Shown here: one piece after another, positions 445-19,729 of the stretch | How the letters are laid out: each line of letters starts with the position of its first letter | How positions within the stretch are numbered: the first letter of the stretch is position 1 | Origin: a virus | Reading direction: 5' to 3' (one strand) | Length of the DNA: 20,247 nt | IMG/VR virus record: IMGVR_UViG_3300025225_000053 | Location: 1 to 20,247 of that record | Translations under genes and position numbers: made by a program | Notes under the pieces: generated by a model | The model's input: only the letters and a program-made list of their open reading frames with translations | Databases searched by the model: none | What the model was told of the DNA's origin: nothing

Positions 445-744
445 ATGAATTCGACATCCAACCATCTGCCTTGTCCGCGCTTCAAGCTAGGCCGAATCCT
501 TGCCACGCCTGCTGCGCTGAGCATCGTTGCCAACGCGAACGCCTCGATCGTCCATCTGCTGATCCGACACGCCTGCGGTGACTGGGGGGATTTGCCCGAG
601 TCCGATCGGGAACAAAACGAACTCGCGGTCGAAGCTGGATCACGGATTTTGTCCAGCTACGTTCTCGCTGACGGGCAGACCGTCTGGCTCATTACCGAAT
701 GGGATCGGTCCGTGACGACGCTTCTGCTACCCGGCGATTACTGA
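445..744 (+). CDS. Small ICE/plasmid-associated conserved hypothetical protein
   Basis: 99 residues from ATG 445, which has GGAGAA five bases upstream; the TTG at 418 is only three bases from a GGAGG and is less likely. The motif GDWGD near residue 45 and the C-terminal pattern of TVWLITEWDRSVTTLLLPGDY type match a family common on plasmids and integrative conjugative elements of proteobacteria, often labelled plasmid-related protein. The family role is unknown; it usually sits among transfer and maintenance genes. The leader holds a small hairpin (397-412, TCCAG/CTGGA). Its presence suggests that the left part of the window derives from an ICE or plasmid. Family recognition is from memory of the motif. 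Confidence 0.8.
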   Translation: MNSTSNHLPCPRFKLGRILATPAALSIVANANASIVHLLIRHACGDWGDLPESDREQNELAVEAGSRILSSYVLADGQTVWLITEWDRSVTTLLLPGDY

Positions 745-762
745 CGCTCCCCTAACGCAGCG

Positions 763-1065
763 CTATCGAAGAAGCTCATCAACAAACGCGATCACTGAGC
801 CTCTCTGACTTTTGCTCAATCGGTGAAATTTGAGCAGCAAGTCGGCTTCCGTATCGTCGGCGGCATAGAAGTACGCCGCCGGCATATGTAAGACGGCGGC
901 CAATCGAACAACCAAATCTGGATCCGGCACGCGCTTACCTAGTTCGTAGCGATTCATCCGCGTGCTCGCAGACATTGGGTCAAGTCCCGCCTCGATCCCA
1001 AGTTTCTCCTGAGACATCCCGACGCGCTGCCGGGCCTCTTTCAGCCGCTGGGCAAGTACGGACAT
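763..1065 (-). CDS. XRE-family HTH transcriptional regulator
   Basis: 100 residues. The start at 1065 is preferred over the in-frame TTG at 1077 because GAAGGT lies just upstream of this ATG. Residues about 5-60 form a Cro/CI-type HTH domain (LAQRLKEARQRVGMSQEKLG, then a recognition-helix region ending in NRYELGKRVPDPD). The short C-terminal tail (LLLKFHRLSKSQRGSVIAFV) resembles that of small XRE repressors. A 27-bp inverted repeat 50 bases upstream of the start is a likely operator, so autoregulation is probable. The gene points toward the 445-744 gene and ends 18 bases from it, so the two converge. Confidence 0.88.
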   Translation of the reverse strand: MSVLAQRLKEARQRVGMSQEKLGIEAGLDPMSASTRMNRYELGKRVPDPDLVVRLAAVLHMPAAYFYAADDTEADLLLKFHRLSKSQRGSVIAFVDELLR

Positions 1066-1115
1066 TTTTACCTTCAAACCATGGAAAGCAAAAATCGTCT
1101 CGGTTTAGCCGCCAT

Positions 1116-1142
1116 CAAATACTACCGATTTGGTAGCATTTG
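1116..1142. promoter_or_regulatory. Palindromic operator upstream of the XRE regulator
   Basis: Arms CAAATACTACC (1116-1126) and GGTAGCATTTG (1132-1142) are reverse complements except for one position, separated by GATTT. The core CTACC-N5-GGTAG is perfect. It lies between the divergent XRE gene and the lipoprotein remnant. Symmetric sites like this are typical for dimeric XRE regulators; the link to this regulator is inferred from position. Confidence 0.6.
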
Positions 1143-1303
1143 GGATCTTCCCCGGATTGCTTTTGGTTGAAACCGTCAGCCATCACCGGGCGAAGACCAT
1201 TTCAAGCGCAACTTCCGTTCCCGGAGTTGTCGCATTAACCACGACGTCGCTCATGGGCAAGAAGAAATCCAGCCACAGGTGACTAAAAATCAAAGGTGGA
1301 ACA

Positions 1304-1696
1304 ATGAAAGCCAAAAAACGTACGGGGCTCAGCAAACACATCTTGGGCCTGTCTGTCGCAACCGCTCTTGCCGCCTGCGGTGGAGGTGGCGATTCTGGCC
1401 CTAGTCAGCCGTCGGCCGGAGGCGGAGGCACGCCAACAACGCCAGCGCCTGCGGTCACTGGCAAAGCCATCGACGGTTACCTGGTCGGCGCCACGGTCTG
1501 GCTGGACCTGAACAACAACGGGGTTTGTGATTCGGGTGAGCCGACGGCAGTCACGAACGGGACGGCGATCGAACAGGAGCATGATCTTGCTGCTCAGCAA
1601 AGCCATGCACGCGAGATCGCGGCAGCAATAGCTGAGCAACGTGCAATGGTTGGGCAGATCAACAGACGTTCGCTCTCAGCTACGGCGGCATTTTGA
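1304..1696 (+). pseudogene. Truncated surface lipoprotein, fused to foreign sequence
   Basis: ATG 1304 is preceded by GGTGGA. Residues 1-25 form a lipoprotein signal (hydrophobic stretch ending in lipobox LAAC, then GGGG). After a Gly/Pro/Thr linker comes AVTGKAIDGYLVGATVWLDL, followed by NNNGVCDSGEP, a repeat-type motif of very large secreted or surface proteins of beta- and gamma-proteobacteria, where it normally continues for hundreds of residues. Here homology ends near base 1566, after a TNGT motif, and the frame runs on into a charged, coiled-coil-like stretch (EQEHDLAAQQSHAREIAAAI) of other origin, stopping at 1696. The gene is therefore a 5' remnant produced by deletion or insertion. 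A 131-residue lipoprotein could still be made and exported. Confidence 0.65.
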
Positions 1697-2932: not shown

Positions 2933-3009
2933 GGGCCCGTAGCTCAGTTGGTCAGAGCAGTCGACTCATAATCGATTGGTCGCAGGTTCAAGTCCGGCCG
3001 GGCCCACCA
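2933..3009 (+). tRNA. tRNA with CAT anticodon, most like tRNA-Ile2
   Basis: A full cloverleaf can be drawn: acceptor GGGCCCG/CGGGCCC (perfect), D stem GCTC/GAGC, anticodon stem GTCGA/TCGAT with loop CTCATAA (anticodon CAT at 2967-2969), variable TGGTC, T loop TTCAAGT and encoded CCA. The anticodon arm and the TTGGTCGC segment resemble the lysidine-modified tRNA-Ile2 rather than elongator Met, but CAT alone cannot separate the two. One T-stem pair is an A-G mismatch (2984 against 2996), in GCAGG/CCGGC where CCTGC would be expected. Confidence 0.85.
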
Positions 3010-3848: not shown

Positions 3849-4868
3849 ATGGCGACCGTAAGCAAGCGCGAAAATGGATGGATGTGCCAAGTTCGCAAAA
3901 TGGGCTACCCTGCCACGTCAAAGAAGTTCGCGACCAAGATCGAAGCCCTCGCATGGGGACGCATGATCGAATCGGAGATGGACCGGGGACTATTCGCGAG
4001 CCGTGACGATGCTGAGCGAACCACCCTAGCGGACTTGCTCGACCGGTACACCCGCGACATATCCCCGACCAAACGCAGCGGCGGCAGCGACAAAGGGCGC
4101 GCGGGGAAGCTCAAGAAGCAACTTGGCGCGTACAAGCTGACCGCACTAACCGCATCCCATCTCGTCGGCTACCGAGATGCACGACTCAAAGAGGTGTCGC
4201 CGCAAACGGTCGTTCATGAGTTGAATCTCGTGAATCGCGTACTGACATTGGCAACACGTGAATGGGGCATCGTCCTGCCCAGCGGCGTACCGAAGGTCGT
4301 CAAGCCTCGGAAGCCACAAGGCCGTAACCGCAGACTGCACCCGGACGAGATACAGGCAATCATCGACGCCACGGAATCTCCGGACCTACGAGACTTCATC
4401 CAGCTTGCCGTAGCGACCGGGATGCGCCGAGGTGAGTTGGCGTCGCTGCGTTGGGAGAACATCGACCTCGATCAACGCACCGCACACCTACCGGTGACGA
4501 AAACGGATACGCCGCGCACCGTCCCGCTCTCCAGTGTCGCCGCAGCCGTGCTACAGGCCCGCAAAGGCACTGGACATGCCGTTCCCTTCGCCGTCACTGC
4601 GGATGCCCTTACGCGAGCGTTCTGCCGCGCCGTACAGAGGGCTCGGAAACTCTATGAATCGACGTGCGGCATCCTTGACCGCCCTGCTACCCCGAACTGG
4701 CTTATCGGTATCCGTCTGCACGACCTCCGGCACGAAGCCACAAGCCGTTTATTCGAGAAAGGTCTCAACCCGATGGAAGTCGCCAGCATCACGGGTCATA
4801 AAACGTTGAGCATGCTCCAACGCTACACCCATCTCCGCGCCGAAGTTTTGGCGAAGAAGCTGGGCTAA
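3849..4868 (+). CDS. int: Tyrosine-type site-specific recombinase (phage integrase)
   Basis: 339 residues. An N-terminal arm-binding region (about 1-50) is followed by a SAM-like core-binding domain (about 58-145) and the catalytic domain (about 160-335). Catalytic residues are visible: Arg193 in ATGMRRGEL, Lys218 in the TKTDTPRTVPL hairpin, His291 and Arg294 in HDLRHEAT, His317 in GHKTL and the nucleophile Tyr326 in MLQRYTHL. All are present, so the enzyme should be active. ATG 3849 has GGAGG four bases upstream, inside the palindrome CCTCC-TT-GGAGG, which may limit translation. It should integrate and, with an excisionase, excise the element at the adjacent tRNA-Arg site. Confidence 0.96.
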   Translation: MATVSKRENGWMCQVRKMGYPATSKKFATKIEALAWGRMIESEMDRGLFASRDDAERTTLADLLDRYTRDISPTKRSGGSDKGRAGKLKKQLGAYKLTALTASHLVGYRDARLKEVSPQTVVHELNLVNRVLTLATREWGIVLPSGVPKVVKPRKPQGRNRRLHPDEIQAIIDATESPDLRDFIQLAVATGMRRGELASLRWENIDLDQRTAHLPVTKTDTPRTVPLSSVAAAVLQARKGTGHAVPFAVTADALTRAFCRAVQRARKLYESTCGILDRPATPNWLIGIRLHDLRHEATSRLFEKGLNPMEVASITGHKTLSMLQRYTHLRAEVLAKKLG

Positions 4869-6196: not shown

Positions 6197-6466
6197 TTAG
6201 GCCCGCCGAGGAAGGTCAACCTCGACCTTCGCCCAAACCGCTCCGGCATAGTCGGCGTTCGCTGAGAGTTCTTCCACGGTCGAACAGGTGAAGTGCGCCC
6301 CCTCTCCAAGCGCGAGCAAAGTCTCAACGTGACTTGCGATCGCAACCTTTGTGTTCTCGATGGCCTCGCCCATGGTCTCGCCCCATGAGTGCGCACCAGG
6401 AATGTCCGGTACGGTCACGCCGAACACAGTCCCATCGTCCTTATGGATTGCTATAGGAAATTCCAT
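6197..6466 (-). CDS. hicB: HicB-family antitoxin-like protein, without HicA
   Basis: 89 residues. ATG 6466 is chosen because CGGAGG lies just upstream; the longer open frame to 6565 runs through a strong hairpin. The fold signature is FPIAIHKDDGTVFGVTVPDI, then PGAHSWGETMGEAIENTK, the RNase H-like HicB domain. In this family HicB neutralises the HicA mRNA interferase and may repress its operon through a C-terminal DNA-binding tail. Here that tail is missing (the protein ends LPRRA) and no HicA-like frame is seen on either side. Solitary HicB genes occur in prophages and may act against host HicA. Domain identity is firm, role uncertain. Confidence 0.85.
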   Translation of the reverse strand: MEFPIAIHKDDGTVFGVTVPDIPGAHSWGETMGEAIENTKVAIASHVETLLALGEGAHFTCSTVEELSANADYAGAVWAKVEVDLPRRA

Positions 6467-6521
6467 CGCCGCCTCCGAGAGTAAAGGACCGCCGCAATGC
6501 AAATGTATATAGGCGCGATAA

Positions 6522-6550
6522 GGCCGCCGCCTATTTCTAGGCGAGCGGCC
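6522..6550. terminator. Strong hairpin upstream of hicB, probable terminator
   Basis: GGCCGCCGCCTA (6522-6533), loop TTTC, then TAGGCG-A-GCGGCC (6538-6550): a 12-bp stem with one bulged A. On the minus strand it is followed by TTATCG. It could end transcripts arriving from the small genes at 6683-7219 and insulate hicB. Confidence 0.5.
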
Positions 6551-6614
6551 GGGCTCATCACGCACAGGCGCGATTTGCCAAGAGCCTAGCGCCCCGTTCG
6601 GTCGACGATATCTG

Positions 6615-6982: not shown

Positions 6983-7069
6983 ACTTTTCACGCATATTCA
7001 TTCTTATACACAGATATACATCCCGGAATACCAATCCCGGAAGAATATCTCAGCGAAAAGTCAATAAAT

Positions 7070-7219
7070 TTATTTTCTTCGTCGTGGGTTTCCAGCAACG
7101 GCCTGGGTGAGCCCGTAGTAATCCGCTCCAAGTTCCCGAACCAGTCGAGCCCCGCGCCTCGATGATTCGCTGCGTGGCCCACGCGGGGTTGCGCGTCTCA
7201 AGTGTGCATGCCGGGACAT
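7070..7219 (-). CDS. Small basic protein, unknown
   Basis: 49 residues from ATG 7219 to TAA 7070. The N-terminal half is rich in Arg and Ser (MSRHAHLRRATPRGPR and onward); the C-terminal half, RLVRELGADYYGLTQAVAGN ending in PRRRK, has protein-like composition. It starts 19 bases after the stop of the 7239-7622 gene, on the same strand, so both are probably one unit under the LexA-box promoter. The purine-rich GGGCGGG before the ATG is a weak binding site. No family recognised; reality is likely but not certain. Confidence 0.45.
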   Translation of the reverse strand: MSRHAHLRRATPRGPRSESSRRGARLVRELGADYYGLTQAVAGNPRRRK

Positions 7220-7238
7220 CCCGCCCGACAAGAAGTAA

Positions 7239-7622
7239 CTAGACCTCACGCGATTCGGAGGCTACCTTGACGCTCGCGTTTAGGAGTCTCCGGAGCGCGA
7301 TCACCTCCAGGACCATGCGGCGCACGTCCGCGCCGTCAACCCGCTCAGGGTTCTTCCACCAGCCCCGCAATGTGCCAGTATCCGGAGATACAAACTCCGG
7401 CAGTGGGTCCGCTCCAGCGGAGGCCGATGTGTACGAGAGCGCTTGCTCGCTAGACTTTGGCTGCAAATACCTATCCCTACGCGTCTCGTCTAGACGCCGT
7501 GCCCCTTCCTTCCCGAACGCGTGCCAGCGTTCAGCCTCCCAATCCGTCATCCAGAATTTGCAGTCGATCACGCCGTAGTACGGGTCAACGTACTCCCAGC
7601 GGTATTCCCAGAGCGGCTCCAC
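7239..7622 (-). CDS. Hypothetical phage protein under an SOS-type promoter
   Basis: 127 residues. GTG 7622 has GAGGT six bases upstream. The N-terminal part is rich in aromatic residues (EPLWEYRWEYVDPYYGVIDC, then FWMTDWEAERW), followed by a basic segment, a Ser/Ala-rich linker and a C-terminal helix (RRMVLEVIALRRLLNASVKV). No catalytic motif or membrane span is visible. The gene starts 16 bases from a perfect LexA box, so it should be repressed until DNA damage. Prophage genes under LexA often take part in induction or host takeover; the actual function is unknown. Confidence 0.75.
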   Translation of the reverse strand: MEPLWEYRWEYVDPYYGVIDCKFWMTDWEAERWHAFGKEGARRLDETRRDRYLQPKSSEQALSYTSASAGADPLPEFVSPDTGTLRGWWKNPERVDGADVRRMVLEVIALRRLLNASVKVASESREV

Positions 7623-7638
7623 GATTCACCTCAAAAGA

Positions 7639-7680
7639 CTGTATGGATATACAGTATATTCCGCGCTACTATGTGGTCAA
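7639..7680 (-). promoter_or_regulatory. LexA-regulated sigma70 promoter
   Basis: CTGTATGGATATACAG (7639-7654) fits the LexA consensus CTGT-N8-ACAG exactly, with perfect dyad symmetry extending one base on each side. On the minus strand, TTGACC (7680-7675) and TATACT (7658-7653) with 16 bases between form a good promoter; the box overlaps the end of the -10 element. It drives the 7622 gene leftward. It is also 90 bases from the plus-strand gene at 7744 and might influence it. Confidence 0.85.
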
Positions 7681-7743
7681 GTCTTGGAAACGGGGCGCGA
7701 TGTAGGTGGAGCGACCGATGCATCAGCGGCAGACGGGGTGAAT

Positions 7744-8268
7744 ATGAAAAAGTCGATTCTTGCCGTGCTTATTACTACGGCGTCGGTGTCCGCCCTCGCG
7801 TTCGACGTGGACGGCTTCCGAACCGGCATGAGTGTGAACGAGGTAGCTACCGTCGTTCGTGGGCAGGGCTGGACGCTTGGCCCAAACAATATGGTTGCTG
7901 GAGTTTACATAGAGGCCCACTTCGGCCCGGACGGTAAGGTAATGGAGCTTGGTCCTGCAAACTTCTCGTTCTGCAATGGGCGGCTTATCGCATACACGCG
8001 GGAACTGGACTTCGATACGGAATACGTGCAGCAACTGCGCGATATGGTCGCAAGATACGGTAGTCAATCAACAATCGAGGTCAGGCAACAGCCGTGGAGC
8101 GGCCCCGGCGGCGGCTATATCTCTACCGCTGCGACTAAGTGGTTCGTTGGCCGAGAGCGTGTTGAACTATCATTCACGCCAGAAGGGCGTACCGGTAACG
8201 GATCTCTGAAATACTACCGAAGTGCGAACGTTTCCTACGTTTTCCCCGGACAGTGCCCCGCGCATTGA
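7744..8268 (+). CDS. Exported protein of unknown function
   Basis: 174 residues from ATG 7744 (GGGGTG four bases upstream); the in-frame extension to 7684 would spoil the signal peptide. Residues 1-19 form a Sec signal (KKSILAVLITTASVSALA), probably cut before FDVDGF. The mature part begins with FRTGMSVNEVATVVRGQGW, a pattern seen in small periplasmic proteins with a BamE/SmpA-like start, and then beta-rich segments with Cys residues (FCNGRL, GQCPAH) that could form a disulfide. The SRAP gene follows after 28 bases on the same strand, so co-transcription is likely. The role is unknown; an envelope-modifying lysogenic-conversion protein is possible. Confidence 0.75.
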   Translation: MKKSILAVLITTASVSALAFDVDGFRTGMSVNEVATVVRGQGWTLGPNNMVAGVYIEAHFGPDGKVMELGPANFSFCNGRLIAYTRELDFDTEYVQQLRDMVARYGSQSTIEVRQQPWSGPGGGYISTAATKWFVGRERVELSFTPEGRTGNGSLKYYRSANVSYVFPGQCPAH

Positions 8269-8296
8269 TTGACGGGATAACGTGAAGGAGTGGGCC

Positions 8297-8959
8297 GTGT
8301 GCACAAACTACAAGGCACCGGGCGAGAACCCAGGTATCAGCGAGCTAAAGATAGGCATCGGCGACCTGTACCGTCGCGACCCTTGGGAATTGGACGTGTA
8401 CCCAGACTACGCCGCACCTATCGCCTACGCTGCTGGGGGCGGTCTAGAGGTCGTAAAGGCCGTGTTTGGCTTCTGGCCGAAGTTCATGCAGCCAGATCGT
8501 GTTGACGAGAATGGGAAGAAAAAGCGCAAGCTGGACACTGTGAACGCTCGGACGGAGACCGTCGGAGAATCCCGGCTGTACGGCAAAGCATGGCGTGAAG
8601 GGCAGCGCTGCTTGATCCCGGCCCAATGGGTTTATGAACCATGTTACGAGACCGGCAAAAACGTGTGGCAACGGATCGGCCTTGCTGGTTGGCAGTCGTA
8701 CTGCGTCGCGGGTATCTGGAAGCGCTATGCGGACCAGGACGGGCGGTCCTTGATTGGCATGTCCATGCTGACCGTCAACGCGGACGGGCATCCTGTTATG
8801 TCCCAGATGCACAAGCCGAATGACGAAAAGCGTTCAGTCGTGATTTTGCAGCCGAAGGACTACGACGAATGGTTGCACTCAAAGAATGTTGAGGCGGCTC
8901 GGACGCTGCTACAGTTATACCCGGCAGAAGAAATGACGGCCGAACCAGCAATTTCTTGA
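8297..8959 (+). CDS. SRAP-domain protein (YedK/HMCES type)
   Basis: 220 residues. The family binds abasic sites in single-stranded DNA and forms a thiazolidine crosslink through Cys2, shielding the lesion; it also acts as a self-cleaving peptidase. The start must leave Cys at position 2: GTG 8297 followed by TGC does this, and AAGGAG lies six bases upstream, so the frame start at 8282 is rejected. Visible active-site residues are Cys2 (MCTNYKAP), Asn83 and Glu87 in the TVNARTET motif, Glu114 in WVYEPC and His172 in MHKPNDEKRS. Length is usual. The family is linked to the SOS response by genome context, and here a LexA box lies 640 bases upstream. On a phage it may protect its own DNA. Confidence 0.93.
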   Translation: MCTNYKAPGENPGISELKIGIGDLYRRDPWELDVYPDYAAPIAYAAGGGLEVVKAVFGFWPKFMQPDRVDENGKKKRKLDTVNARTETVGESRLYGKAWREGQRCLIPAQWVYEPCYETGKNVWQRIGLAGWQSYCVAGIWKRYADQDGRSLIGMSMLTVNADGHPVMSQMHKPNDEKRSVVILQPKDYDEWLHSKNVEAARTLLQLYPAEEMTAEPAIS

Positions 8960-8971
8960 GGGCTGGCGATG

Positions 8972-9000
8972 GTAGTATTTTGCTCAACCACAAATACTAC
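8972..9000. promoter_or_regulatory. Perfect inverted repeat upstream of the HEPN-like gene
   Basis: GTAGTATTT (8972-8980) and AAATACTAC (8992-9000) are exact reverse complements, 11 bases apart, in the 59-base gap between SRAP and the HEPN-like gene and 18 bases before its ATG. Operator or mRNA hairpin; no T tract. Confidence 0.5.
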
Positions 9001-9018
9001 GGGGAACGAGGTCAAGAC

Positions 9019-9531
9019 ATGCTTGAACGGATGATTCCGATTTCGATGGAACTGGTGACTGGGTTTACGGCCGTTTTCTCGCGATATGAATACGCGCTTA
9101 AGAATTCCGGTTTCGCGAAAGGAAGCAAAAGCAAGGCGGAGCCGGACTGGGATGCGTTTGCCCTGAGCATCGCTGACAAATTCGATCATTTAACCAACCC
9201 GCGATTCCGTGAGGCAGTCACATATCTGGTGACATCCCCGCCGCGAAAGCAAGTTCTTGTCAATCATAGGGTAAGGTGGAAGGAATCGCCGCCCGATGCT
9301 GGGCTCCGTGCTTCGGCTCAAGCGCTGCTCATGGTGCGAAGGGTGAGAAATAACCTGTTCCATGGGGCAAAAGTTTGGGCTCCAGACGGCGATTGGTCAC
9401 GTGAACGTAATGAAAAATTGGTGAAGGACTCCCTCGTAGTCTTAGTTAATTGTTTGCCCCTGCATCCGCATGTAGGTGGGACGTTCGGATACTTCGATAT
9501 CCACGAGTATGTGGACCGGCTAGCAGCGTAG
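9019..9531 (+). CDS. HEPN-like protein with RX4H motif
   Basis: 170 residues. ATG 9019 has GAGG seven bases upstream; a TTG at 8956 overlapping the SRAP stop would add 21 residues but crosses a perfect inverted repeat and has no binding site. The mostly helical protein has FSRYEYALKNSGF (about 20-32) and, near the C-terminus, VRRVRNNLFHG with Arg110-Asn111 and His115: the R-polar-x3-H motif of HEPN ribonucleases, commonly found in toxins and defence effectors. It follows SRAP and precedes a PIN-like gene on the same strand. An RNA-cutting effector is a reasonable hypothesis; not every protein with this motif is an active nuclease. Confidence 0.65.
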   Translation: MLERMIPISMELVTGFTAVFSRYEYALKNSGFAKGSKSKAEPDWDAFALSIADKFDHLTNPRFREAVTYLVTSPPRKQVLVNHRVRWKESPPDAGLRASAQALLMVRRVRNNLFHGAKVWAPDGDWSRERNEKLVKDSLVVLVNCLPLHPHVGGTFGYFDIHEYVDRLAA

Positions 9532-9646: not shown

Positions 9647-11116
9647 ATGTTAAGAGACCAATTCCCAGGCTACTACCAACCCACCAAAGATAATTTAGAA
9701 GCGATTTGGCGTGATGCGACGTTTATCGTTGACACAAATGTGCTTCTAAATTTGTATAAATTCCCCCAGCAGGCACGCGACGATCTTTTCGCAGTCCTGG
9801 AAAAGCTTGCCGGCCGCTTATGGATACCCTTTCACGTCGCCCTCGAGTACCAAAGAAATAGAGTCGGGGTAATTCTAGAAGAAAATGAAAAATTCGATTC
9901 AACTGTAAAGCAACTAGAAAAAGCAGAATCCGAACTTGACCAAGCTGTTGCACGTCTAGAATTGGGTAAGCGAGGACTGGGTATCGACCCGTCCCCTTTG
10001 ACGAGCGCATTGAAAGATGCAATATCAAAGATTCGGGAATCCGTAGACAAAGCCCGAAAAAATCAATTATCCGTCAACCATGATGATGCAGTCCGCGACC
10101 GCTTAGAGAAAATACTGGGCAGTAACATCGGAGCACCACCCAAAAATCAAGCAGAGCTAGATAAATCGCTAGATGATGCAGTCACACGGTATGAAAAAAG
10201 AATCCCACCCGGCTTCTTAGACCACGGCAAATCCAAAAATCCAAACGAAGCAAAATATATTCACGACGGCATTGAATACACCGCCGAATACGGCGACTTA
10301 ATTATATGGCGACAAATAATTCACCACGCCAACAACCAAGAAATCAAGAACTTAGTCTTTGTAACTGGCGACAGAAAGGAAGACTGGTGGGCTCGCAAAC
10401 TTGGTCAAACTTTGGGCCCACTGCCAGAACTTACGCAAGAAATATGTCGACTATCTAGCGTCAAGATGTTTTGGATGTACACAGTCGATCAATTTCTTGA
10501 AATGGCAAGCAAGGCACTTCACACCCCGATTGACAAATCGTCAGTCAGGGAGGTAAAAGACATCGAAAATGCCGAATTTAAGAACGAAATCGCAAAATCC
10601 CTATGGCAAAGCCTCACTCTTAATGCTCATCTTACGAAATCCCTCGATAGCCAAACAATAACTCAGGCTCTAGAACTAATAAATCACCTTACCACTAGAG
10701 AAAATGCACGCCAAGCAATTCTATACGCAGCCTCTGAAAGTGATTTGACAAAGATGAAAATTAGCATTGATGAGTGGGTTGCCCGACAGAAAGGCGATAG
10801 CGAATGGATTGAGGTCAATCCGAGTGTTTGGCCCACCTACCTTTTTAAGAATGAGTTCATAACTCGTGGACTTCACATTTCAACTGGGGAATTCCACTCC
10901 CACGCGTATGATTTGATCAAATGCAGCAGGGCTGTCGAGTCGGGTGATATCAACTCAGCAACCATCATCTTTACGGAGATGAAGCCACGCTCAAAGATCC
11001 TTGATAGCCGATTCGGCGACACTCGCGAGATGGAGAAAAACTTCCCAAACGTCAATTGCTTATACGGATTCTTTGACGACCAGATGAATTTCTCCGTGCC
11101 GGGAATCGACAACTAG
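9647..11116 (+). CDS. Large PIN-like domain protein, probable nuclease
   Basis: 489 residues from ATG 9647 (GAGG five bases upstream). The PIN-like domain is split: FIVDTNVLLNLYKF (Asp29, Asn31) and WIPFHVALEYQRNR (Glu67) lie before a long coiled coil (about 80-160), and EYGDLIIWRQI (Asp217) with FVTGDRKEDWWAR (Asp242) after it. These acidic residues would bind the metal. This arrangement matches the PIN_8 type of PIN-like domain, often found in defence islands. The C-terminal 200 residues are not recognised and may sense or regulate. The gene is clearly more AT-rich than its neighbours, so it was probably acquired separately. Fold identification is good; substrate and biological role are unknown. 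Confidence 0.85.
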   Translation: MLRDQFPGYYQPTKDNLEAIWRDATFIVDTNVLLNLYKFPQQARDDLFAVLEKLAGRLWIPFHVALEYQRNRVGVILEENEKFDSTVKQLEKAESELDQAVARLELGKRGLGIDPSPLTSALKDAISKIRESVDKARKNQLSVNHDDAVRDRLEKILGSNIGAPPKNQAELDKSLDDAVTRYEKRIPPGFLDHGKSKNPNEAKYIHDGIEYTAEYGDLIIWRQIIHHANNQEIKNLVFVTGDRKEDWWARKLGQTLGPLPELTQEICRLSSVKMFWMYTVDQFLEMASKALHTPIDKSSVREVKDIENAEFKNEIAKSLWQSLTLNAHLTKSLDSQTITQALELINHLTTRENARQAILYAASESDLTKMKISIDEWVARQKGDSEWIEVNPSVWPTYLFKNEFITRGLHISTGEFHSHAYDLIKCSRAVESGDINSATIIFTEMKPRSKILDSRFGDTREMEKNFPNVNCLYGFFDDQMNFSVPGIDN

Positions 11117-12323: not shown

Positions 12324-12651
12324 TAAAACATCTCCTTTGATCAGAAGCCCATAGACGGGCTGATTGATTCAGGTATGCCCCAGCCCTTCGCAGCCTCGCA
12401 ACACGCCCACAGTGAGGCCGAAACGGCCGCTTGTGGTATCTGGAGCAAAGCCACTGAGGTGGCTAGGGACGGGGGGATAGGAAAAATGCGGAGGTCAAAA
12501 GCCGCAGCGCCGACCGGTCAGTGTCGAAATATCGCTAACTGCAAAAATTTCCGCCGATAACGCCCTAGCTCTCAGGGATCGGCCTGGAATCGCCTGAACC
12601 CGTCGACACCCTCGGCTACAATGCCGCTGTCGCCTCAATGGAGAGCAAGCA
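12324..12651. promoter_or_regulatory. Divergent control region, possible promoter for the 12652 gene
   Basis: This 328-base stretch lies between the leftward HNH gene and the rightward 12652 gene. CTGAAC (12594-12599) and TACAAT (12617-12622) with 17 bases between could serve the rightward gene. AGCCC/GGGCT (12346-12361) is a short hairpin near the HNH start. A 61-codon plus-strand frame (12375-12560) has no convincing start and looks like chance. Confidence 0.4.
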
Positions 12652-14136: not shown

Positions 14137-15387
14137 CTATTCGGTACTTAGCTTGCGCCCTGCCAGTGCTGAAAGTGCGTAGTTCTGCTGCTGCATGTAC
14201 GGGGTGTCGCCGCCTTCCTTCGGTGCGAGTCCCTGTCGCGCGCGTGCCTCATTCGGGGCCATGATCCCAGCACCGACCGATTGCGCGTTAGCGGACAGCA
14301 TTGCGGCTTCGTCCATCCGCATCAGGCCGGATGTATCGAACTTGAAACCTACCGTATCAGGGACGCCGAATGCATCGTCTAGCAATAGCTCGATAGCCTC
14401 AAGGTAGGCTTGCAGGCAGTCGGAGTAATACATACCCTCATAGACCGCGTTAGAGGCCGCCGTACGCGCGCCTGTATCCAGTCCGATCTTATGGCCGGGT
14501 ACGTGGAAGCATCGGGCGACGTCTTGTGCAGTCCATTGGAGGTGTTCGACGGTTTGCGCGTCAGAACCGGTCATCGTCATGGGGTTGTACACAAGACCAT
14601 CACCAGCAACCAGCGTGCCGCCTGCACCCATACCGCTGTATTCGTCCATCTGCTTCTTAAGCCGCTGGGCGGTAGGTTCCGAGATTGCGCCCGGAGCGGA
14701 CAGCACGCCAGAAGGACGGGCCGCATTGGAGAAGAACGCGGCGGAGTTGTTCGTGATGCTGCTAGCGAGAACGGCAGACCCGGCACACGCCGCAATCGGC
14801 GTTATGCCTACGAGCGGATGCCACGACGTAATACCCCGATCGTGGATGATGTCGCGCGCGGGTACTACGAAGGTCTCCAACGGAGTGACCATAAGCGGAG
14901 ACATCGTGACCTGATAAAAGATCGAACCGTCAGGCGCAACGAGGGGAACGACGTACTTGGGATTTAGCACGTCCATTGAGACGATGCCGCCCATGCTGTT
15001 CCGGTTGAGAAGAACGTAGGTGTTGCCGTGCGTGAGTTTGCTCGCGAGCCACGCCTTAACGAACTGCTGGCGCGTTTGATAGTGGTTCGGTTTGCGTAGT
15101 ATGGTCGTGAAGCGCGGGGCGCTAGATTCGAGCCATACACCATCCGTCAACTTTACGTATTTGATACGCAACTTCGAAACGTCCGACGAGATGAGGTCTA
15201 CACATGCGAACACTGCCGAGCTAGCTAGCATACCGTCGCGTGTGCTTAGAGCCTGGTTCTTTTGCCACGCCCCAGGATACGGCTCGCGGATGTACCCATT
15301 AGAACCGGGTGCACCGATTGCCGATGCACCAACAGACGCGGCGGGACGCTTCTTGAACTTGAGCGCCTTGGTTAAGCGGGCGAACAT
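14137..15387 (-). CDS. Phage portal protein, HK97 type
   Basis: 416 residues from ATG 15387, with AAGGG eight bases upstream. The portal ring occupies one capsid vertex, serves as DNA entry channel and binds the terminase and tail connector. Typical HK97 portal motifs: SAVFACVDLISSDVSKLRIK near residue 60, the helix region AWLASKLTHGNTYVLLNRN, the D-I-I-H-D segment near 190 and the C-terminal EHLQWTAQDVARCFHVPGHK, with NEARARQGLAPKEGGD near the end. Length is usual. A terminator lies between capsid and portal, so the portal probably has its own promoter or depends on read-through. No protease or terminase gene adjoins it, which is unusual. Confidence 0.95.
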   Translation of the reverse strand: MFARLTKALKFKKRPAASVGASAIGAPGSNGYIREPYPGAWQKNQALSTRDGMLASSAVFACVDLISSDVSKLRIKYVKLTDGVWLESSAPRFTTILRKPNHYQTRQQFVKAWLASKLTHGNTYVLLNRNSMGGIVSMDVLNPKYVVPLVAPDGSIFYQVTMSPLMVTPLETFVVPARDIIHDRGITSWHPLVGITPIAACAGSAVLASSITNNSAAFFSNAARPSGVLSAPGAISEPTAQRLKKQMDEYSGMGAGGTLVAGDGLVYNPMTMTGSDAQTVEHLQWTAQDVARCFHVPGHKIGLDTGARTAASNAVYEGMYYSDCLQAYLEAIELLLDDAFGVPDTVGFKFDTSGLMRMDEAAMLSANAQSVGAGIMAPNEARARQGLAPKEGGDTPYMQQQNYALSALAGRKLSTE

Positions 15388-15437
15388 TGCATCCGCCCTT
15401 GATGTTGGACTTATTCAGCCTCCTTGCAATCAGAAAT

Positions 15438-15467
15438 CTAAAAAAGAATGGGCGGCCTGGAGCCGCC
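15438..15467 (-). terminator. Intrinsic terminator after the capsid gene
   Basis: On the minus strand GGCGGC, loop TCCAG, GCCGCC, then CAT and a T-rich run (TTCTTTTTTAG) form a classic terminator 16 bases after the capsid stop and 51 bases before the portal start. Confidence 0.85.
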
Positions 15468-15482
15468 GATCACGCGTAACCG

Positions 15483-16436
15483 TTATTTCAACGTAACGGC
15501 TACGGCCGCCCCTTCAACAAAGTCCCAGTCAGCGTACTGCTCGGCCTTGACTGCGACTTGATCGGTCGAGAACAAGTCAACATATACCTGCGATGTCGTT
15601 CCCGAACCATCATCGACGTTAAGGCGACCAGCGCCGGCCGCCCCCATTTCAACGTCGCCGATGTATGCCAGCACGCGGCTTGCATCCACAATGAACAGTT
15701 TGTCTTGCGGAACACCATACGAAGCAATAGCAGGTAGGCCGCCGTATTCGCCGCCACTAGCTGTAATTCGCGTCTCAGTAGGACTGCGGAGTGCGATCGC
15801 GGTACGCGGATGGACCAGAACACTCGAAGTCGTAAGATCGCCGGTAAACATATTGATACCGTCAGCGTACGTTGACGCCTGCAACGCCAGAGACGCTAAA
15901 CCAGCGGGAGCGGACTCATCCCGTCCCTGCCCACCTACAAAGTAATTATCAAGACCGCGACTCAATGCCCGTTGCAGTTGAGCGGAAATTACCTCCTCCG
16001 CTGCGTCGCCAGTCATCCGGAAAAGTTCCCGCGACATGACTGCGACGAGGCCCACTTTGCGCTTGTCCACAAGATTCGTGGTAAATGTACCTCGATACGT
16101 CGGGAGTGGCATGTACTCGCCTACGAACCTCGCTGCAATTTGTGAGGTCTCGGCGTTCACGCGGCAGATTGCCGGGACCTGTACCAGCCCATTAAGTTGC
16201 CCGAGAATCGAGCGGCTAAACACAGCCTGTACAAATTCCTGACGGCTCAAAGTCCCTGCCGTAAGGGCGCCCTTCGCGTCCGGGCCAGCGAGCATCGGGT
16301 TAGTAAGCGCCTTAACAACTTGTGTTGCACCTGCGTTTGCCCCCCACCGCGCCTCAGCATAGGTAGCAGCGCCCGCCGGGCCGGCAACAACGTCTGCGAT
16401 AACCGAGCGAATGAAGGTATTATTCTTTTTTGTCAT
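15483..16436 (-). CDS. HK97-fold major capsid protein
   Basis: 317 residues from ATG 16436, with AGGAAT six bases upstream. The protein forms the icosahedral shell. Recognisable parts are the region FVGEYMPLPTYRGTFTTNLV (E-loop/P-domain strand), RKVGLVAVMSRELFRMTGDA with the long spine helix following, RGLDNYFVGGQ, the A-domain region VLVHPRTAIALRS and the C-terminal DLFSTDQVAVKAEQYADWDF, typical of the family. It begins without the usual 100-residue delta scaffold domain and no prohead protease gene lies next to it, which suggests assembly without cleavage or loss of those parts. It has its own promoter and terminator. Confidence 0.93.
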   Translation of the reverse strand: MTKKNNTFIRSVIADVVAGPAGAATYAEARWGANAGATQVVKALTNPMLAGPDAKGALTAGTLSRQEFVQAVFSRSILGQLNGLVQVPAICRVNAETSQIAARFVGEYMPLPTYRGTFTTNLVDKRKVGLVAVMSRELFRMTGDAAEEVISAQLQRALSRGLDNYFVGGQGRDESAPAGLASLALQASTYADGINMFTGDLTTSSVLVHPRTAIALRSPTETRITASGGEYGGLPAIASYGVPQDKLFIVDASRVLAYIGDVEMGAAGAGRLNVDDGSGTTSQVYVDLFSTDQVAVKAEQYADWDFVEGAAVAVTLK

Positions 16437-16450
16437 GTCGTATTCCTAAA

Positions 16451-16478
16451 TTTATAGTGGTTAATGCCGTACATTCAA
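16451..16478 (-). promoter_or_regulatory. Probable sigma70 promoter of the capsid gene
   Basis: On the minus strand TTGAAT (16478-16473) and TATAAA (16456-16451) are 16 bases apart, with the capsid ATG 15 bases after the -10 element. The short leader still contains AGGAAT. Confidence 0.55.
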
Positions 16479-16501
16479 ATAACGAACCCGCCCCGGCTTC
16501 G
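16476..16501 (-). terminator. Possible terminator after the tape measure gene
   Basis: Minus strand: CGAAGCCG, loop GGG, CGGGTTCG (one G-G mismatch), followed by TTATTTG. It begins 22 bases after the tape measure stop and runs directly into the capsid promoter. Confidence 0.4.
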
Positions 16502-16523
16502 ACGGATTCGCGGTACTGGTCAG

Positions 16524-19289
16524 TTACAGCAGACCGTTACGGATTTGGTACGCGTATCCGCCCTGCTCGGTGATACGCTTGTGTACCTGGATGTCGATAA
16601 GCCCCTGAATCTGCGGAGCCAAGTCCTTCAGGTCAGCCTCCGTCAGAACGCTACCGCCGCCGTTCAGATTCAACGTGAGATTTGGTCTCTCGCCACTACC
16701 GGAGATAGCAACGGGCGACGACGACAGGGAACTTGCAATGCCGCCGTTAGCAAAGTGCGCCATGTGGCCCGAGTTGATCGCCTCAAGTAGGCTGCGGTAC
16801 TTCTTCGTAGACGCTGCATTAATGACGAACTCTCCGTTCGAAAGCATCGCGGGAATGCTGTCGCTTGTGCCCGTACCGGGACCGCTGATTGCACCGCCCG
16901 ACGCGAAATGACCAACGGGGCCGCCTTCGCTGAAAAAGCCGAACGAACTTGCCACGCCCTTGAACGCTGCGATCTCGGCTTGCCGCAAGGCGATCTTCGC
17001 GAGGTCTGCGAGAACGGACGTAGCGAACGAACTAAAGCTAGCTTTACCTGTCGTGATGAACGTATCGAGCGCGTTGCTAACGGAGTCGAACGCACCACGA
17101 AACCCGCGAGCGACAGCCTCGGCAGTGGTTTGCGAGGAGCCTACGAGGTCGTTGTACGTTAGCTTGAATTGCGCACCAAACGACTCGCGGACGGCTTGCA
17201 TCTCCTCTTGACGGGCCTGATACGCTTCAACGTCTCGCCGGTAGAATTCTCCCGCGATCCGGGCCTTCTCGTCATATTCCTTCCGGTCGGCCGTCAGACC
17301 GCTATAGGCTTCTGCGAGCGACACCATCTTGCGTTCGTACTGATCCCGCAAAGCCGCAAGACCGTCATACTTCGACTTCTCGTCAGCGAGCATAAACCGC
17401 GTGTGCCGCGTATCTGCATACTTATTGAGTTGCGCCCCATACGCTGCGGTTTCTTGTGCGGAGAATTTTGCAATGTTCGACGCACGTTGCGCGGACAGCT
17501 TCTCCAACGTGTTGGTCAAGTCCTGCTCAATGCCAACGCGGCGCGCCTGCAAGGCTTGAAGTTCCTTGAGTGCAGTTTGATATGTTGCGCTTTCAGAATG
17601 AGCCTTGGCTACGTCAACACGCTTCTGCGCATTCGCAATTTTCTGATCAATAGCGCGTGTCTGTAGTTCCTCCAATCTCCGATAGTAGTCCTTCACATTT
17701 AACACGCCGATGTCATACTGCGCTTTGAGATTCCGCTCATCTTGTCGCGCCATTTCCGCAATAGCGGCGTTGGCCGTCTCGTACTTGGCAAGATTCCCCT
17801 GCCATGCCGATCTATCCCCACTGCCTGATCGTTTCGGGTCTTTGTATTTCTCGTTGATGTTGCCTACCATCTTCTGATACTCGGCGGCAGACAACCCCCT
17901 ACCATCAGCAACAAGTGCGGCTTGATCCCTCGCGAGTTGCGCAAGTTCCCTCTGCCGCTTTTGCGCATTCGTCATGATCTGATCGCGAAGCGTGTCCATC
18001 CGTTGCAAGGCGGCTACGGCTGCCTGCTCTCGGGCGGTTCCTTCCGCTTGGGCCTGAGCATATTTGGCTTCGTTCTGCTGGTACGCTTTCAGGTTTGCGA
18101 TCTGACGATCTACGTCCGCGATGGAGTGGCTTGTGAAGCCTCCGCCCGCCTTCACCATTGCGGCTCGGTCGATCTGCAACGAATCGATACGATCCTGGAG
18201 CGACGGCCCCGAACTGAGACCCTGCTTGACCTTCACCCAGAACGTGTCAATTTCTCTGGATAGTGCGCGCCACGAACCGGCGGCCTCCCTGAGATGCTTC
18301 GCGCTGGAATCCTGCACCTGTGACAGCGCAGCCTCTATTACGGCCTGGACGGCTTGGTGTTTATCTCCGGCGTCCTGCAACGCCTTGATATGCTCATAGG
18401 TCGCCGCGTCCATGAAGTGCATGCTCCGGTTATGCTCGGTAGCCCATTTCATGGGGTCGTCTGCCAGATTCGCGTATTCCTTGGACACATCGTCAAGCGC
18501 GGCACCGGAGATTTTCGACGTGCGGAGAATGACTTCCGCCAACCCTTCCATCTCCTTTGACGTATAGCGCCCGGTCGATGCAAGACTCCGCAGCACGTCA
18601 CCAGCTTGGGAGAGCCCGCTATTCGCTGCCGCTGCAACCCGGAACTGCATCGCACCTAGACTATCCGCCGTTAGGCCCGCGAAGTTGTTGGTCAGTTGGA
18701 TAGCTGCGTTAAACTGCTTGGCTTCCTCTGCACCCTTCGCCATCGCTGCCGCGAATGCTGCGGCCGTCCCCGCTGCTGCCCCAAGACTGACCCCAAGCGG
18801 CGACATAATCACGCTCAGTGCGTCGGATGCCTCAGCCATTACCAGTAACGACCCGCCGAACCGTTTCCAACTTCCCTGTGACGCTTCGTGCGCGAGAACG
18901 AGCATTTCGCGACGCGCGGCGGAATTATTGAGGCTGAACGAATGCGCCGCGTGGGCGGCTTGTTGGATCGCTGCCGCCTGGGCGGAGAACGCTTGCGTAA
19001 CGCCTCGCGCGGCTGCTTGCTGGTTCAGCATTTCCAACCGCGTTTTACCGGCTGTTGCCTGGAGTCGGTCGTACTGATCTACGAGCTTCTTTGCCTCGCG
19101 TGCAGTGAGGTTATAGCCGTTGGTAGCGGCTTCCTGCATCGCTCGCTGTACTGCTTCTTGCTTGCGCCGTACTTCTTCCTGTGACGCGTTTAGTTGCGCG
19201 TTTGCGGCTCGTAGTTGGCCGATACCCGCCTGTGCGCCCGAAGCATCGACCGAGTACCGAACAGTGGTATTGTTGTTACTGATGCTCAC
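16524..19289 (-). CDS. Tail tape measure protein
   Basis: 921 residues, the largest gene. GTG 19289 overlaps the upstream stop (GTGA) and has AAAGGAGGT close by. The N-terminal part is coiled coil (about 20-110, ANAQLNASQEEVRRKQEAVQ); about 130-330 resembles the TMP_2 domain with a hydrophobic stretch near 165-190 (LGVSLGAAAGTAAAFAAAMA). Long Gln/Ala-rich helices follow, and the C-terminal 200 residues match lambda-type tape measures (LADLAKIALRQAEIAAFKGV; ALSNGEFVINAASTKKY-like segment; NLTLNLNGGGSVLTEADL). It sets tail length in a siphovirus; at about 1.5 angstrom per residue the tail would be near 140 nm. No frameshifted chaperone pair is seen upstream. Confidence 0.95.
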   Translation of the reverse strand: MSISNNNTTVRYSVDASGAQAGIGQLRAANAQLNASQEEVRRKQEAVQRAMQEAATNGYNLTAREAKKLVDQYDRLQATAGKTRLEMLNQQAAARGVTQAFSAQAAAIQQAAHAAHSFSLNNSAARREMLVLAHEASQGSWKRFGGSLLVMAEASDALSVIMSPLGVSLGAAAGTAAAFAAAMAKGAEEAKQFNAAIQLTNNFAGLTADSLGAMQFRVAAAANSGLSQAGDVLRSLASTGRYTSKEMEGLAEVILRTSKISGAALDDVSKEYANLADDPMKWATEHNRSMHFMDAATYEHIKALQDAGDKHQAVQAVIEAALSQVQDSSAKHLREAAGSWRALSREIDTFWVKVKQGLSSGPSLQDRIDSLQIDRAAMVKAGGGFTSHSIADVDRQIANLKAYQQNEAKYAQAQAEGTAREQAAVAALQRMDTLRDQIMTNAQKRQRELAQLARDQAALVADGRGLSAAEYQKMVGNINEKYKDPKRSGSGDRSAWQGNLAKYETANAAIAEMARQDERNLKAQYDIGVLNVKDYYRRLEELQTRAIDQKIANAQKRVDVAKAHSESATYQTALKELQALQARRVGIEQDLTNTLEKLSAQRASNIAKFSAQETAAYGAQLNKYADTRHTRFMLADEKSKYDGLAALRDQYERKMVSLAEAYSGLTADRKEYDEKARIAGEFYRRDVEAYQARQEEMQAVRESFGAQFKLTYNDLVGSSQTTAEAVARGFRGAFDSVSNALDTFITTGKASFSSFATSVLADLAKIALRQAEIAAFKGVASSFGFFSEGGPVGHFASGGAISGPGTGTSDSIPAMLSNGEFVINAASTKKYRSLLEAINSGHMAHFANGGIASSLSSSPVAISGSGERPNLTLNLNGGGSVLTEADLKDLAPQIQGLIDIQVHKRITEQGGYAYQIRNGLL

Positions 19290-19729
19290 TGACCTCCTTT
19301 CTTGTTTAGTGCTGCATGGATTACCTCTGTAGACCTATCCGCCGCCCGCTGTTTCATCGCTTCAAAGGCGGGCCGAACAAAGGGATGGGCGGGCATCTTT
19401 GATGTTCCATTTTCATGCCAACCCGCAAGCGCGCGGCGAGATACCTTTTTCTTTTTCGGGCCTTTGGGCTTGGTATCGCCAACAAATGTCGCAATGTAAG
19501 TAGCGACGAGACCCGCGACGCTATCCTCTTGGTCGTAGGCGACAGTTAGACCTGATGCCAAGTCACCGGATTCTCTCGGGACGCGTAGAGCAATCTCATT
19601 TTTGATCACCGTGACGCCTGCGGCCGCGGCTTTCCGCAACGTCGATTCCGAAAACGTCTGATCGAGCGCGGTGATTGCGTTAGCCAGCGCGTCGGGGTTA
19701 TCTACGGAGTACGATTTTCCGCGTGCCAT
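19286..19729 (-). CDS. HK97 gp10-like head-tail joining/tail completion protein
   Basis: 147 residues from ATG 19729, with GAGGGAC upstream. The family pattern is visible: TLRKAAAAGVTVIKNEIALR near residue 30, then RESGDLASGLTV, and a C-terminal GWHENGTSKMPAHPFVRPAF near residue 105-125, the most conserved part of gp10-like proteins. These proteins connect the neck or the tail end during assembly. The gene ends inside the start of the tape measure gene (4-base overlap), so translation is coupled. In usual siphophages it lies several genes before the tape measure, near the head-tail connectors; here it directly precedes it. Confidence 0.88.
   Translation of the reverse strand: MARGKSYSVDNPDALANAITALDQTFSESTLRKAAAAGVTVIKNEIALRVPRESGDLASGLTVAYDQEDSVAGLVATYIATFVGDTKPKGPKKKKVSRRALAGWHENGTSKMPAHPFVRPAFEAMKQRAADRSTEVIHAALNKKGGQ

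What the first reader, a model, noticed from the sequence alone, without database searches (positions are those of the whole stretch)
7639..7680. Perfect LexA box on a prophage promoter driving an unknown gene
CTGTATGGATATACAG is an exact match to CTGT-N8-ACAG and overlaps a good -10 (TATACT, with TTGACC 16 bases away). The first gene is a 127-residue protein of unknown family followed by a 49-residue basic protein. Direct LexA control of an unknown unit may mark an induction trigger (such as an antirepressor) in an element with no visible CI repressor.
Basis: partly seen in the sequence, partly recalled or inferred. Interest (0 to 1): 0.55.

Follow-up and report, generated by a model that had tools for sequence, protein, structure and literature searches.

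The report
LexA-controlled prophage SRAP and partner module
In a Burkholderia prophage, one binding site for the bacterial DNA-damage switch LexA sits between two oppositely directed genes, a probable abasic-site-shielding protein (SRAP) and a small protein of an undescribed family; the arrangement is kept in many unrelated prophages, so it looks like a mobile piece of the SOS response rather than simply an unknown induction trigger.

Summary
The box (7639-7654, CTGTATGGATATACAG) and the leftward promoter are real and selectively kept. A perfect box lies upstream of SRAP in 20 of 20 viral loci, in 5 of 5 Burkholderia phages fetched, and in 34 of 36 full-length mobile SRAP copies of 65 Burkholderia genomes, against 0 of 37 syntenic chromosomal SRAPs. 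Burkholderia lexA carries the same motif (12 of 12). The leftward 127-aa gene belongs to an undescribed modular family beside 52 of 60 such boxes. Intact 208/215-aa members keep the box at about -31 (25 of 26), including 14 of 15 syntenic chromosomal copies that have no SRAP. One LexA dimer would silence two overlapping divergent promoters until DNA damage. The antirepressor idea is not excluded, but all six relatives with a 97-98% identical portal encode a CI-like S24 repressor, so 'no visible CI' probably reflects an incomplete or rearranged record. Chromosomal SRAPs form a clade nested among phage SRAPs and lack the box, suggesting domestication with loss of SOS control. What the partner does is unknown; binding and induction are inferred, not shown.

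The parts
7639..7654 (.). LexA (SOS) box CTGTATGGATATACAG, shared operator
   Evidence: conserved in relatives
7675..7680 (-). -35 of leftward promoter (TTGACC); TTGAC conserved in relatives, usually at 19-bp spacing (16 here)
7653..7658 (-). -10 of leftward promoter (TATACT), overlaps the LexA box
7644..7649 (+). proposed -35 of rightward promoter (TGGATA), inside the LexA box
   Evidence: inference from the alignment of 65 sequences; coordinates; not reported by the promoter scan
7667..7672 (+). proposed -10 of rightward promoter (TACTAT; TAAGAT in most relatives), 17 bp from the -35
7239..7622 (-). 127-aa partner protein (N-terminal W-x-Y-x-W-E-Y region and C-terminal LR..WW...VRRMVLEVIALRR motif), GTG start 16 nt from the box
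7744..8268 (+). 174-aa ORF with signal-peptide-like N-terminus, inserted between promoter and SRAP; a homologue in L005 (88%)
8297..8959 (+). SRAP gene (SOS response-associated peptidase / YedK-HMCES family), 220 aa from GTG; Cys2, Asn83, Glu114, His172 kept

Best explanation
The site is a LexA operator between two divergent, overlapping promoters of a mobile SOS module. In the undamaged lysogen a host LexA dimer on 7639-7654 covers the -10 of the leftward promoter and the -35 of the rightward one, keeping both off. After DNA damage, RecA-stimulated LexA self-cleavage frees both. The rightward transcript makes SRAP (here preceded by an inserted 174-aa cargo gene). By homology with YedK/HMCES, SRAP would crosslink through Cys2 to abasic sites in single-stranded DNA and shield them. 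The leftward transcript makes a small partner of an undescribed family, probably acting in the same damage response. Shown here: box, gene content, conservation, host LexA motif, catalytic residues. Inferred: LexA binding, damage induction, SRAP activity, whether phage or host benefits, and everything about what the partner does.
For: Perfect box upstream of SRAP in 20 of 20 viral loci; in 5 of 5 Burkholderia phages fetched (KS9, Magia, AP3, Mana, BgManors32); in 34 of 36 mobile but 0 of 37 chromosomal full-length SRAPs, with 4 other perfect boxes in 361,192 bases of the same loci, about 0.008 expected per 700 bp. 12 of 12 Burkholderia lexA genes found carry two perfect boxes of the same type at -43/-23 or -46/-26. 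65 aligned sites keep TAAGAT-like and TTGAC elements at fixed places. 52 of 60 box loci have a leftward gene of one modular family (hhalign probabilities 95-98%). The partner's box persists without SRAP: 14 of 15 syntenic chromosomal 215-aa copies, 0 of 15 with SRAP in the fetched stretch. Cys2 in 105 of 105 SRAPs. SRAP chemistry: PMC9436759 (passages).
Against: No expression or binding data. Two of 36 mobile SRAPs lack a perfect box (L153 has one mismatch, L154 none), and Bordetella phage PHB09 has none in 200 bp upstream. In three of five loci where the partner occurs without SRAP nearby the box is absent. The rightward -35 is inferred and weak; the promoter scan reports only the leftward promoter. 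Leftward spacing in relatives is 19 bp, longer than ideal. In the window 658 bp separate box and SRAP, so SRAP may have a second promoter. The virus loci are related, and some records were seen from both genes, so counts are not independent events. The order of the window's structural genes differs from relatives, so this prophage may be defective or the contig misassembled.
Confidence: 0.7

Rival explanations
1. The leftward protein is a LexA-controlled antirepressor that inactivates a phage repressor, as in Gifsy prophages or Tum of phage 186; the box is an induction trigger.
For: LexA-controlled antirepressor genes outside the immunity region are documented (PMC3121763, abstract). Phage 186 has a LexA site on p95 driving tum near the genome end. 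23 of 30 virus and phage records searched show no S24 repressor, so a non-cleavable repressor is possible in them.
Against: All six records with a 97-98% identical portal encode an S24 repressor. The same partner family sits in phages of different families (KS9 99%, Mana 73%, Magia 43% to one 155-aa member) and as a syntenic chromosomal gene. No detectable similarity to Tum.
Confidence: 0.12
2. Phage SRAP is itself a damage sensor and lysis switch, with the partner as its target or regulator, as Aravind and co-workers suggested for phage SRAPs.
For: PMC3765255 (passages) proposes this and names a Burkholderia thailandensis prophage SRAP; the LexA box adds a regulatory link.
Against: Later biochemistry points to abasic-site crosslinking (PMC9436759, passages). 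In two loci a DUF72 gene takes the place of SRAP behind the same box and partner, and a box-less SRAP is fixed in chromosomes, which fits a repair-type cargo better than a lysis switch.
Confidence: 0.08
3. The module is lysogenic-conversion cargo that helps the host survive DNA damage, with no role in the phage cycle.
For: Both halves appear as chromosomal genes: 37 syntenic SRAPs forming one clade nested in phage SRAPs and 15 syntenic partners. It occurs in phages of different families, and other sequence or cargo stands between promoter and SRAP in the window, L018, L021, L157 and L180.
Against: Expression only on LexA cleavage would coincide with prophage induction, when the host is about to lyse; a benefit to replicating phage DNA is as likely.
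Confidence: 0.3
4. The box is a chance or fortuitous palindrome with no LexA role.
For: A single CTGT-N8-ACAG in a 20-kb window could arise by chance; one-mismatch sites occur at the chance rate.
Against: Conservation against a background of 4 sites in 361 kb.
Confidence: 0.02

Closest known systems
SRAP / YedK-HMCES family (PF02586; PHROG 1599)
   Same: Above Pfam cut-off; Cys2 and the Asn/Glu/His positions kept; SOS association is the origin of the family name (PMC3765255).
   Different: Here it stands divergent to an undescribed partner under a shared, conserved LexA box in prophages, instead of in a umuDC or imuAB-dnaE2 neighbourhood (two Burkholderia loci, L160 and L183, do pair it with an imuA-like gene, recognised from memory).
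LexA-controlled prophage antirepressor operons (Gifsy GfoA/GfhA; Tum of phage 186)
   Same: Small gene with a LexA box over its promoter, in relatives away from the repressor gene.
   Different: No sequence similarity to Tum; relatives of the window's phage have an S24 repressor; the box also serves a divergent SRAP gene.
PHROG 17852 (unknown function)
   Same: The 208-aa leftward gene of many relatives is this family.
   Different: The window's 127-aa protein shares only a C-terminal segment of about 44 residues with it (hhalign 96%) and has another N-terminal region.
hypA/hypB, hypothetical LexA-regulated genes of beta-Proteobacteria (PMC3323433)
   Same: hypB is described as Burkholderia-specific and LexA-regulated; it could be the chromosomal 215-aa partner copy.
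   Different: The passage gives no sequence, so identity is a guess.

Membership tests
SRAP (PF02586) | Profile match over the curated cut-off | tested here: met
   82.7 bits against 27.1
SRAP (PF02586) | Cys at position 2 after Met | tested here: met
   Window protein, and 105 of 105 SRAPs compared
SRAP (PF02586) | Asn, Glu and His active-site residues (YedK 75, 105, 160) | tested here: met
   N83, E114, H172 invariant in 20 rows; correspondence to YedK numbers is inferred from order and motif, no alignment to YedK was made
SRAP (PF02586) | Crosslink to abasic sites | not testable with these tools
   needs protein
LexA regulon | CTGT-N8-ACAG box overlapping a promoter | tested here: met
LexA regulon | Host LexA uses this motif | tested here: met
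   Two boxes before lexA in 12 of 12 Burkholderia genomes examined; the window's own host is not known
LexA regulon | Box conserved in relatives that keep the gene | tested here: met
LexA regulon | LexA binding and damage induction | not testable with these tools
   needs footprint and RNA
LexA-controlled antirepressor | LexA box on the promoter | tested here: met
LexA-controlled antirepressor | Sequence similarity to a known antirepressor (Tum) | tested here: not met
   hhalign probability about 0.1%; Gifsy antirepressors were not compared
LexA-controlled antirepressor | Phage repressor is not an S24 self-cleaving type | tested here: inconclusive
   S24 found in 7 of 30 records, including all 6 close relatives; none in the window itself

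The most novel reading that the evidence does not exclude
The leftward proteins are a previously undescribed family of SOS proteins, spread by Burkholderia phages and fixed in some chromosomes, that work with (or regulate) SRAP or a swapped-in DUF72 enzyme at damaged DNA. The LexA-boxed cassette has been domesticated in two separate halves: chromosomal SRAP lost the box, chromosomal partner kept it.
Probability: 0.4. Interest if true: 0.65.

Novelty: new variant of a known kind. Interest (0 to 1): 0.52.

Why it matters
It gives a concrete, testable answer to why temperate phages carry SRAP genes: in Burkholderia they appear wired directly to host LexA, together with a protein family that no library used here names. 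It warns that a LexA box in a prophage does not by itself mark an induction trigger. PSOSP (PMC12527982, passages) classes prophages as SOS-dependent from SOS boxes in prophage promoter regions; by that stated rule a module box like this one could decide the class. It also offers a natural experiment, with phage SRAP under apparent SOS control and a domesticated chromosomal SRAP outside it.

Tried and rejected
Family libraries gave nothing for the partner: Pfam, PHROGs, PADLOC, NCBIfam, apart from PHROG 17852 for the 208-aa form and matches too weak to use. AlphaFold models were poor (127 aa: pLDDT 66; 208 aa: pLDDT 56). Foldseek of the first found nothing at E<=0.001 among 87 matches; the second was not searched because a poor model gives meaningless matches. 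Profile search of solved structures with A2 gave one ribosomal protein at E 0.76, ignored. A strict box-plus-SRAP-start pattern found 1 of 399 genomes across the order and a box-plus-TAAGATG pattern 3 of 150 in the family. These patterns are too strict to show absence: the first missed G001, which has the module. In the family search the SRAPs of genomes outside my Burkholderia set are 41-50% identical; L194, L197 and L198 have a box 62-77 bp upstream. Plasmid search with 7000-9000 found only SRAP-like pieces in 13 records.

No printed report pairing a Burkholderia prophage SRAP with a LexA box turned up in ten searches of the open library. That covers open-licence PMC papers only. Papers seen: PMC3765255, PMC3323433, PMC9436759, PMC12527982, PMC10710452 (matching passages only), PMC3121763 (outline and abstract); the rest of the search hits as listings only.

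Rows dropped: of 98 SRAP matches, I used the 73 that start at profile position 1 without an internal stop and are not cut short (one 118-residue fragment was also left out). Duplicate sites were removed. Of 35 phage records with an SRAP match, 6 records were fetched (5 Burkholderia, 1 Bordetella).

Full report
What is there. The window is a 20,247-base IMG/VR record. A perfect LexA box lies at 7639-7654. On the minus strand it overlaps the -10 of a good promoter (TTGACC-16-TATACT) whose first gene is the 127-aa ORF 7239-7622. The 49-residue downstream ORF is not conserved: alignment to the relatives L001-L005 ends at 7209 or 7153.

Is it more than chance? One core box in 20 kb is not striking alone, but conservation is. 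Eleven viral loci encode a 127-aa relative: nine have a perfect box, L010 has one mismatch, and L011 holds only part of the gene and no box. Twenty viral SRAP loci all have a perfect box upstream: sixteen at -66 to -68, two at -87, two at -496. Four loci occur in both sets. Five of five Burkholderia phages fetched have it, at -66 to -68 or -85; a Bordetella phage does not within 200 bp.

Host and chromosomal contrast. Named relatives are Burkholderia. In 12 genomes examined, each lexA gene carries two perfect boxes of this motif. In 65 Burkholderia genomes 58 have SRAP (98 matches); I fetched the 73 full-length ones. Thirty-seven share one chromosomal neighbourhood and none has a perfect box in the 700 bp upstream; of the other 36, 34 do. 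Elsewhere in these loci there are 4 perfect boxes in 361,192 bases. A tree of 105 SRAPs puts the 37 chromosomal ones in one clade (100/99), next to the viral copy L024 and inside box-bearing phage SRAPs. Domestication of a phage SRAP with loss of the box is the simplest reading, with the root placed only by midpoint.

Promoter anatomy. In 65 non-identical sites the box is followed at a nearly fixed distance by TAAGAT (TACTAT here), 17 bp from a TGGATA-like hexamer inside the box: a proposed rightward promoter. Then GTCAA follows, which read leftward is TTGAC, in most 19 bp from TANACT over the box edge (16 bp in the window). A single LexA dimer would cover the leftward -10 and the rightward -35. 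The rightward promoter is my inference; the scan did not report it.

The partner family. At 60 distinct box loci the gene starting just left of the box is of the W-x-Y-x-W-E-Y type in 33 (124-156 aa, the window's type), the 208-aa PHROG 17852 type in 18 (one of them cut to 82 aa), and an 85-aa form with only the shared C-terminal segment in one. Four have a small cysteine-containing protein, one a 103-aa protein, two an imuA-like gene (L160 and L183; the script filed L183 under 'other', and the imuA label is from memory), and one is unclear. Profile comparison links the three main forms (probability 95-98%). A partner-first search found 42 of 65 genomes with matches; of the 30 loci returned, 26 have a perfect box beside the partner's start. 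With the 208-aa profile there are 29 matches in 28 genomes: 26 intact genes, of which 25 have a perfect box at -30 to -33 and one has a single mismatch; three broken copies have none. Fifteen of the 26 are a 215-aa chromosomal form: all 15 lie beside the same oxidoreductase-like gene, none has SRAP in the fetched stretch, and 14 keep the perfect box. In two loci (L237, L246) a DUF72 gene takes SRAP's place behind the same box.

Mechanism. LexA represses both arms; damage releases them. SRAP's Cys2 is present in 105 of 105 sequences and N83/E114/H172 are invariant in 20, matching the residue types that make the abasic-site crosslink in YedK (PMC9436759, passages). The likely benefit is protection of damaged single-stranded DNA in the induced lysogen. 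Whether phage or host gains, and what the partner does, is not shown. In the window a 174-aa gene has entered the rightward operon between the conserved leader and SRAP.

The induction-trigger idea. LexA-controlled antirepressors exist (PMC3121763, abstract; phage 186 tum). The partner shows no similarity to Tum. All six records with a portal 97-98% identical to the window's carry an S24 repressor, CI-like by PHROG for the one scanned. Seven of 30 records searched have S24 in all, so in others a non-cleavable repressor is possible and the idea stays open at low weight. The window's structural genes run tape measure, capsid, portal, unlike relatives, so the immunity region may simply be missing.

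Novelty. An SOS link of SRAP and a guess at a phage switch are in print (PMC3765255, passages). The conserved LexA operator, the partner family and the split domestication were not found in the ten searches listed under Tried and rejected. Verdict: a real, conserved new variant of LexA-controlled prophage cargo.

Noticed in passing
L237 and L246 (about 480-1505, minus strand): A DUF72 (PF01904) gene stands in the place of SRAP behind the same LexA box, leader and partner gene.
   Followed up: partly
L256, L269, L292-L306: A chromosomal 215-aa relative of the 208-aa partner, beside the same oxidoreductase-like gene in 15 of 15, with a perfect LexA box at -31 to -33 in 14 of 15 and no SRAP; perhaps hypB of PMC3323433.
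   Followed up: partly
L160 and L183: SRAP divergent from an imuA-like gene (recognised from memory) with a perfect LexA box between them.
   Followed up: no
window 14140-19729: Order on the minus strand is neck, tape measure, capsid, portal; in relatives the portal precedes the tape-measure region. Possible defective prophage or misassembly.
   Followed up: partly
window 12510-12593: An 84-base stretch 95-98% identical to a part of relatives that lies about 1.4 kb from their S24 repressor gene (G589), perhaps a remnant.
   Followed up: no
window 8956-9531: ORF of PHROG 19013 overlapping the SRAP stop, possibly the next gene of the same operon; function unknown.
   Followed up: no
window 9647-11116: 489-aa protein with a PIN-like domain (PIN_8, E 5.1e-60).
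   Followed up: no
window 6197-6565, minus strand: HicB-like antitoxin domain (PF15919); no partner toxin was looked for.
   Followed up: no
window 2933-3009: tRNA-Met 0.8 kb before the integrase (3849-4868), a candidate attachment site.
   Followed up: no
L005 (rightward of its box) and L185: Box and conserved leader kept with other genes downstream (174-aa ORF in L005, a spanin-like ORF in L185) and no SRAP found in the fetched stretch.
   Followed up: partly
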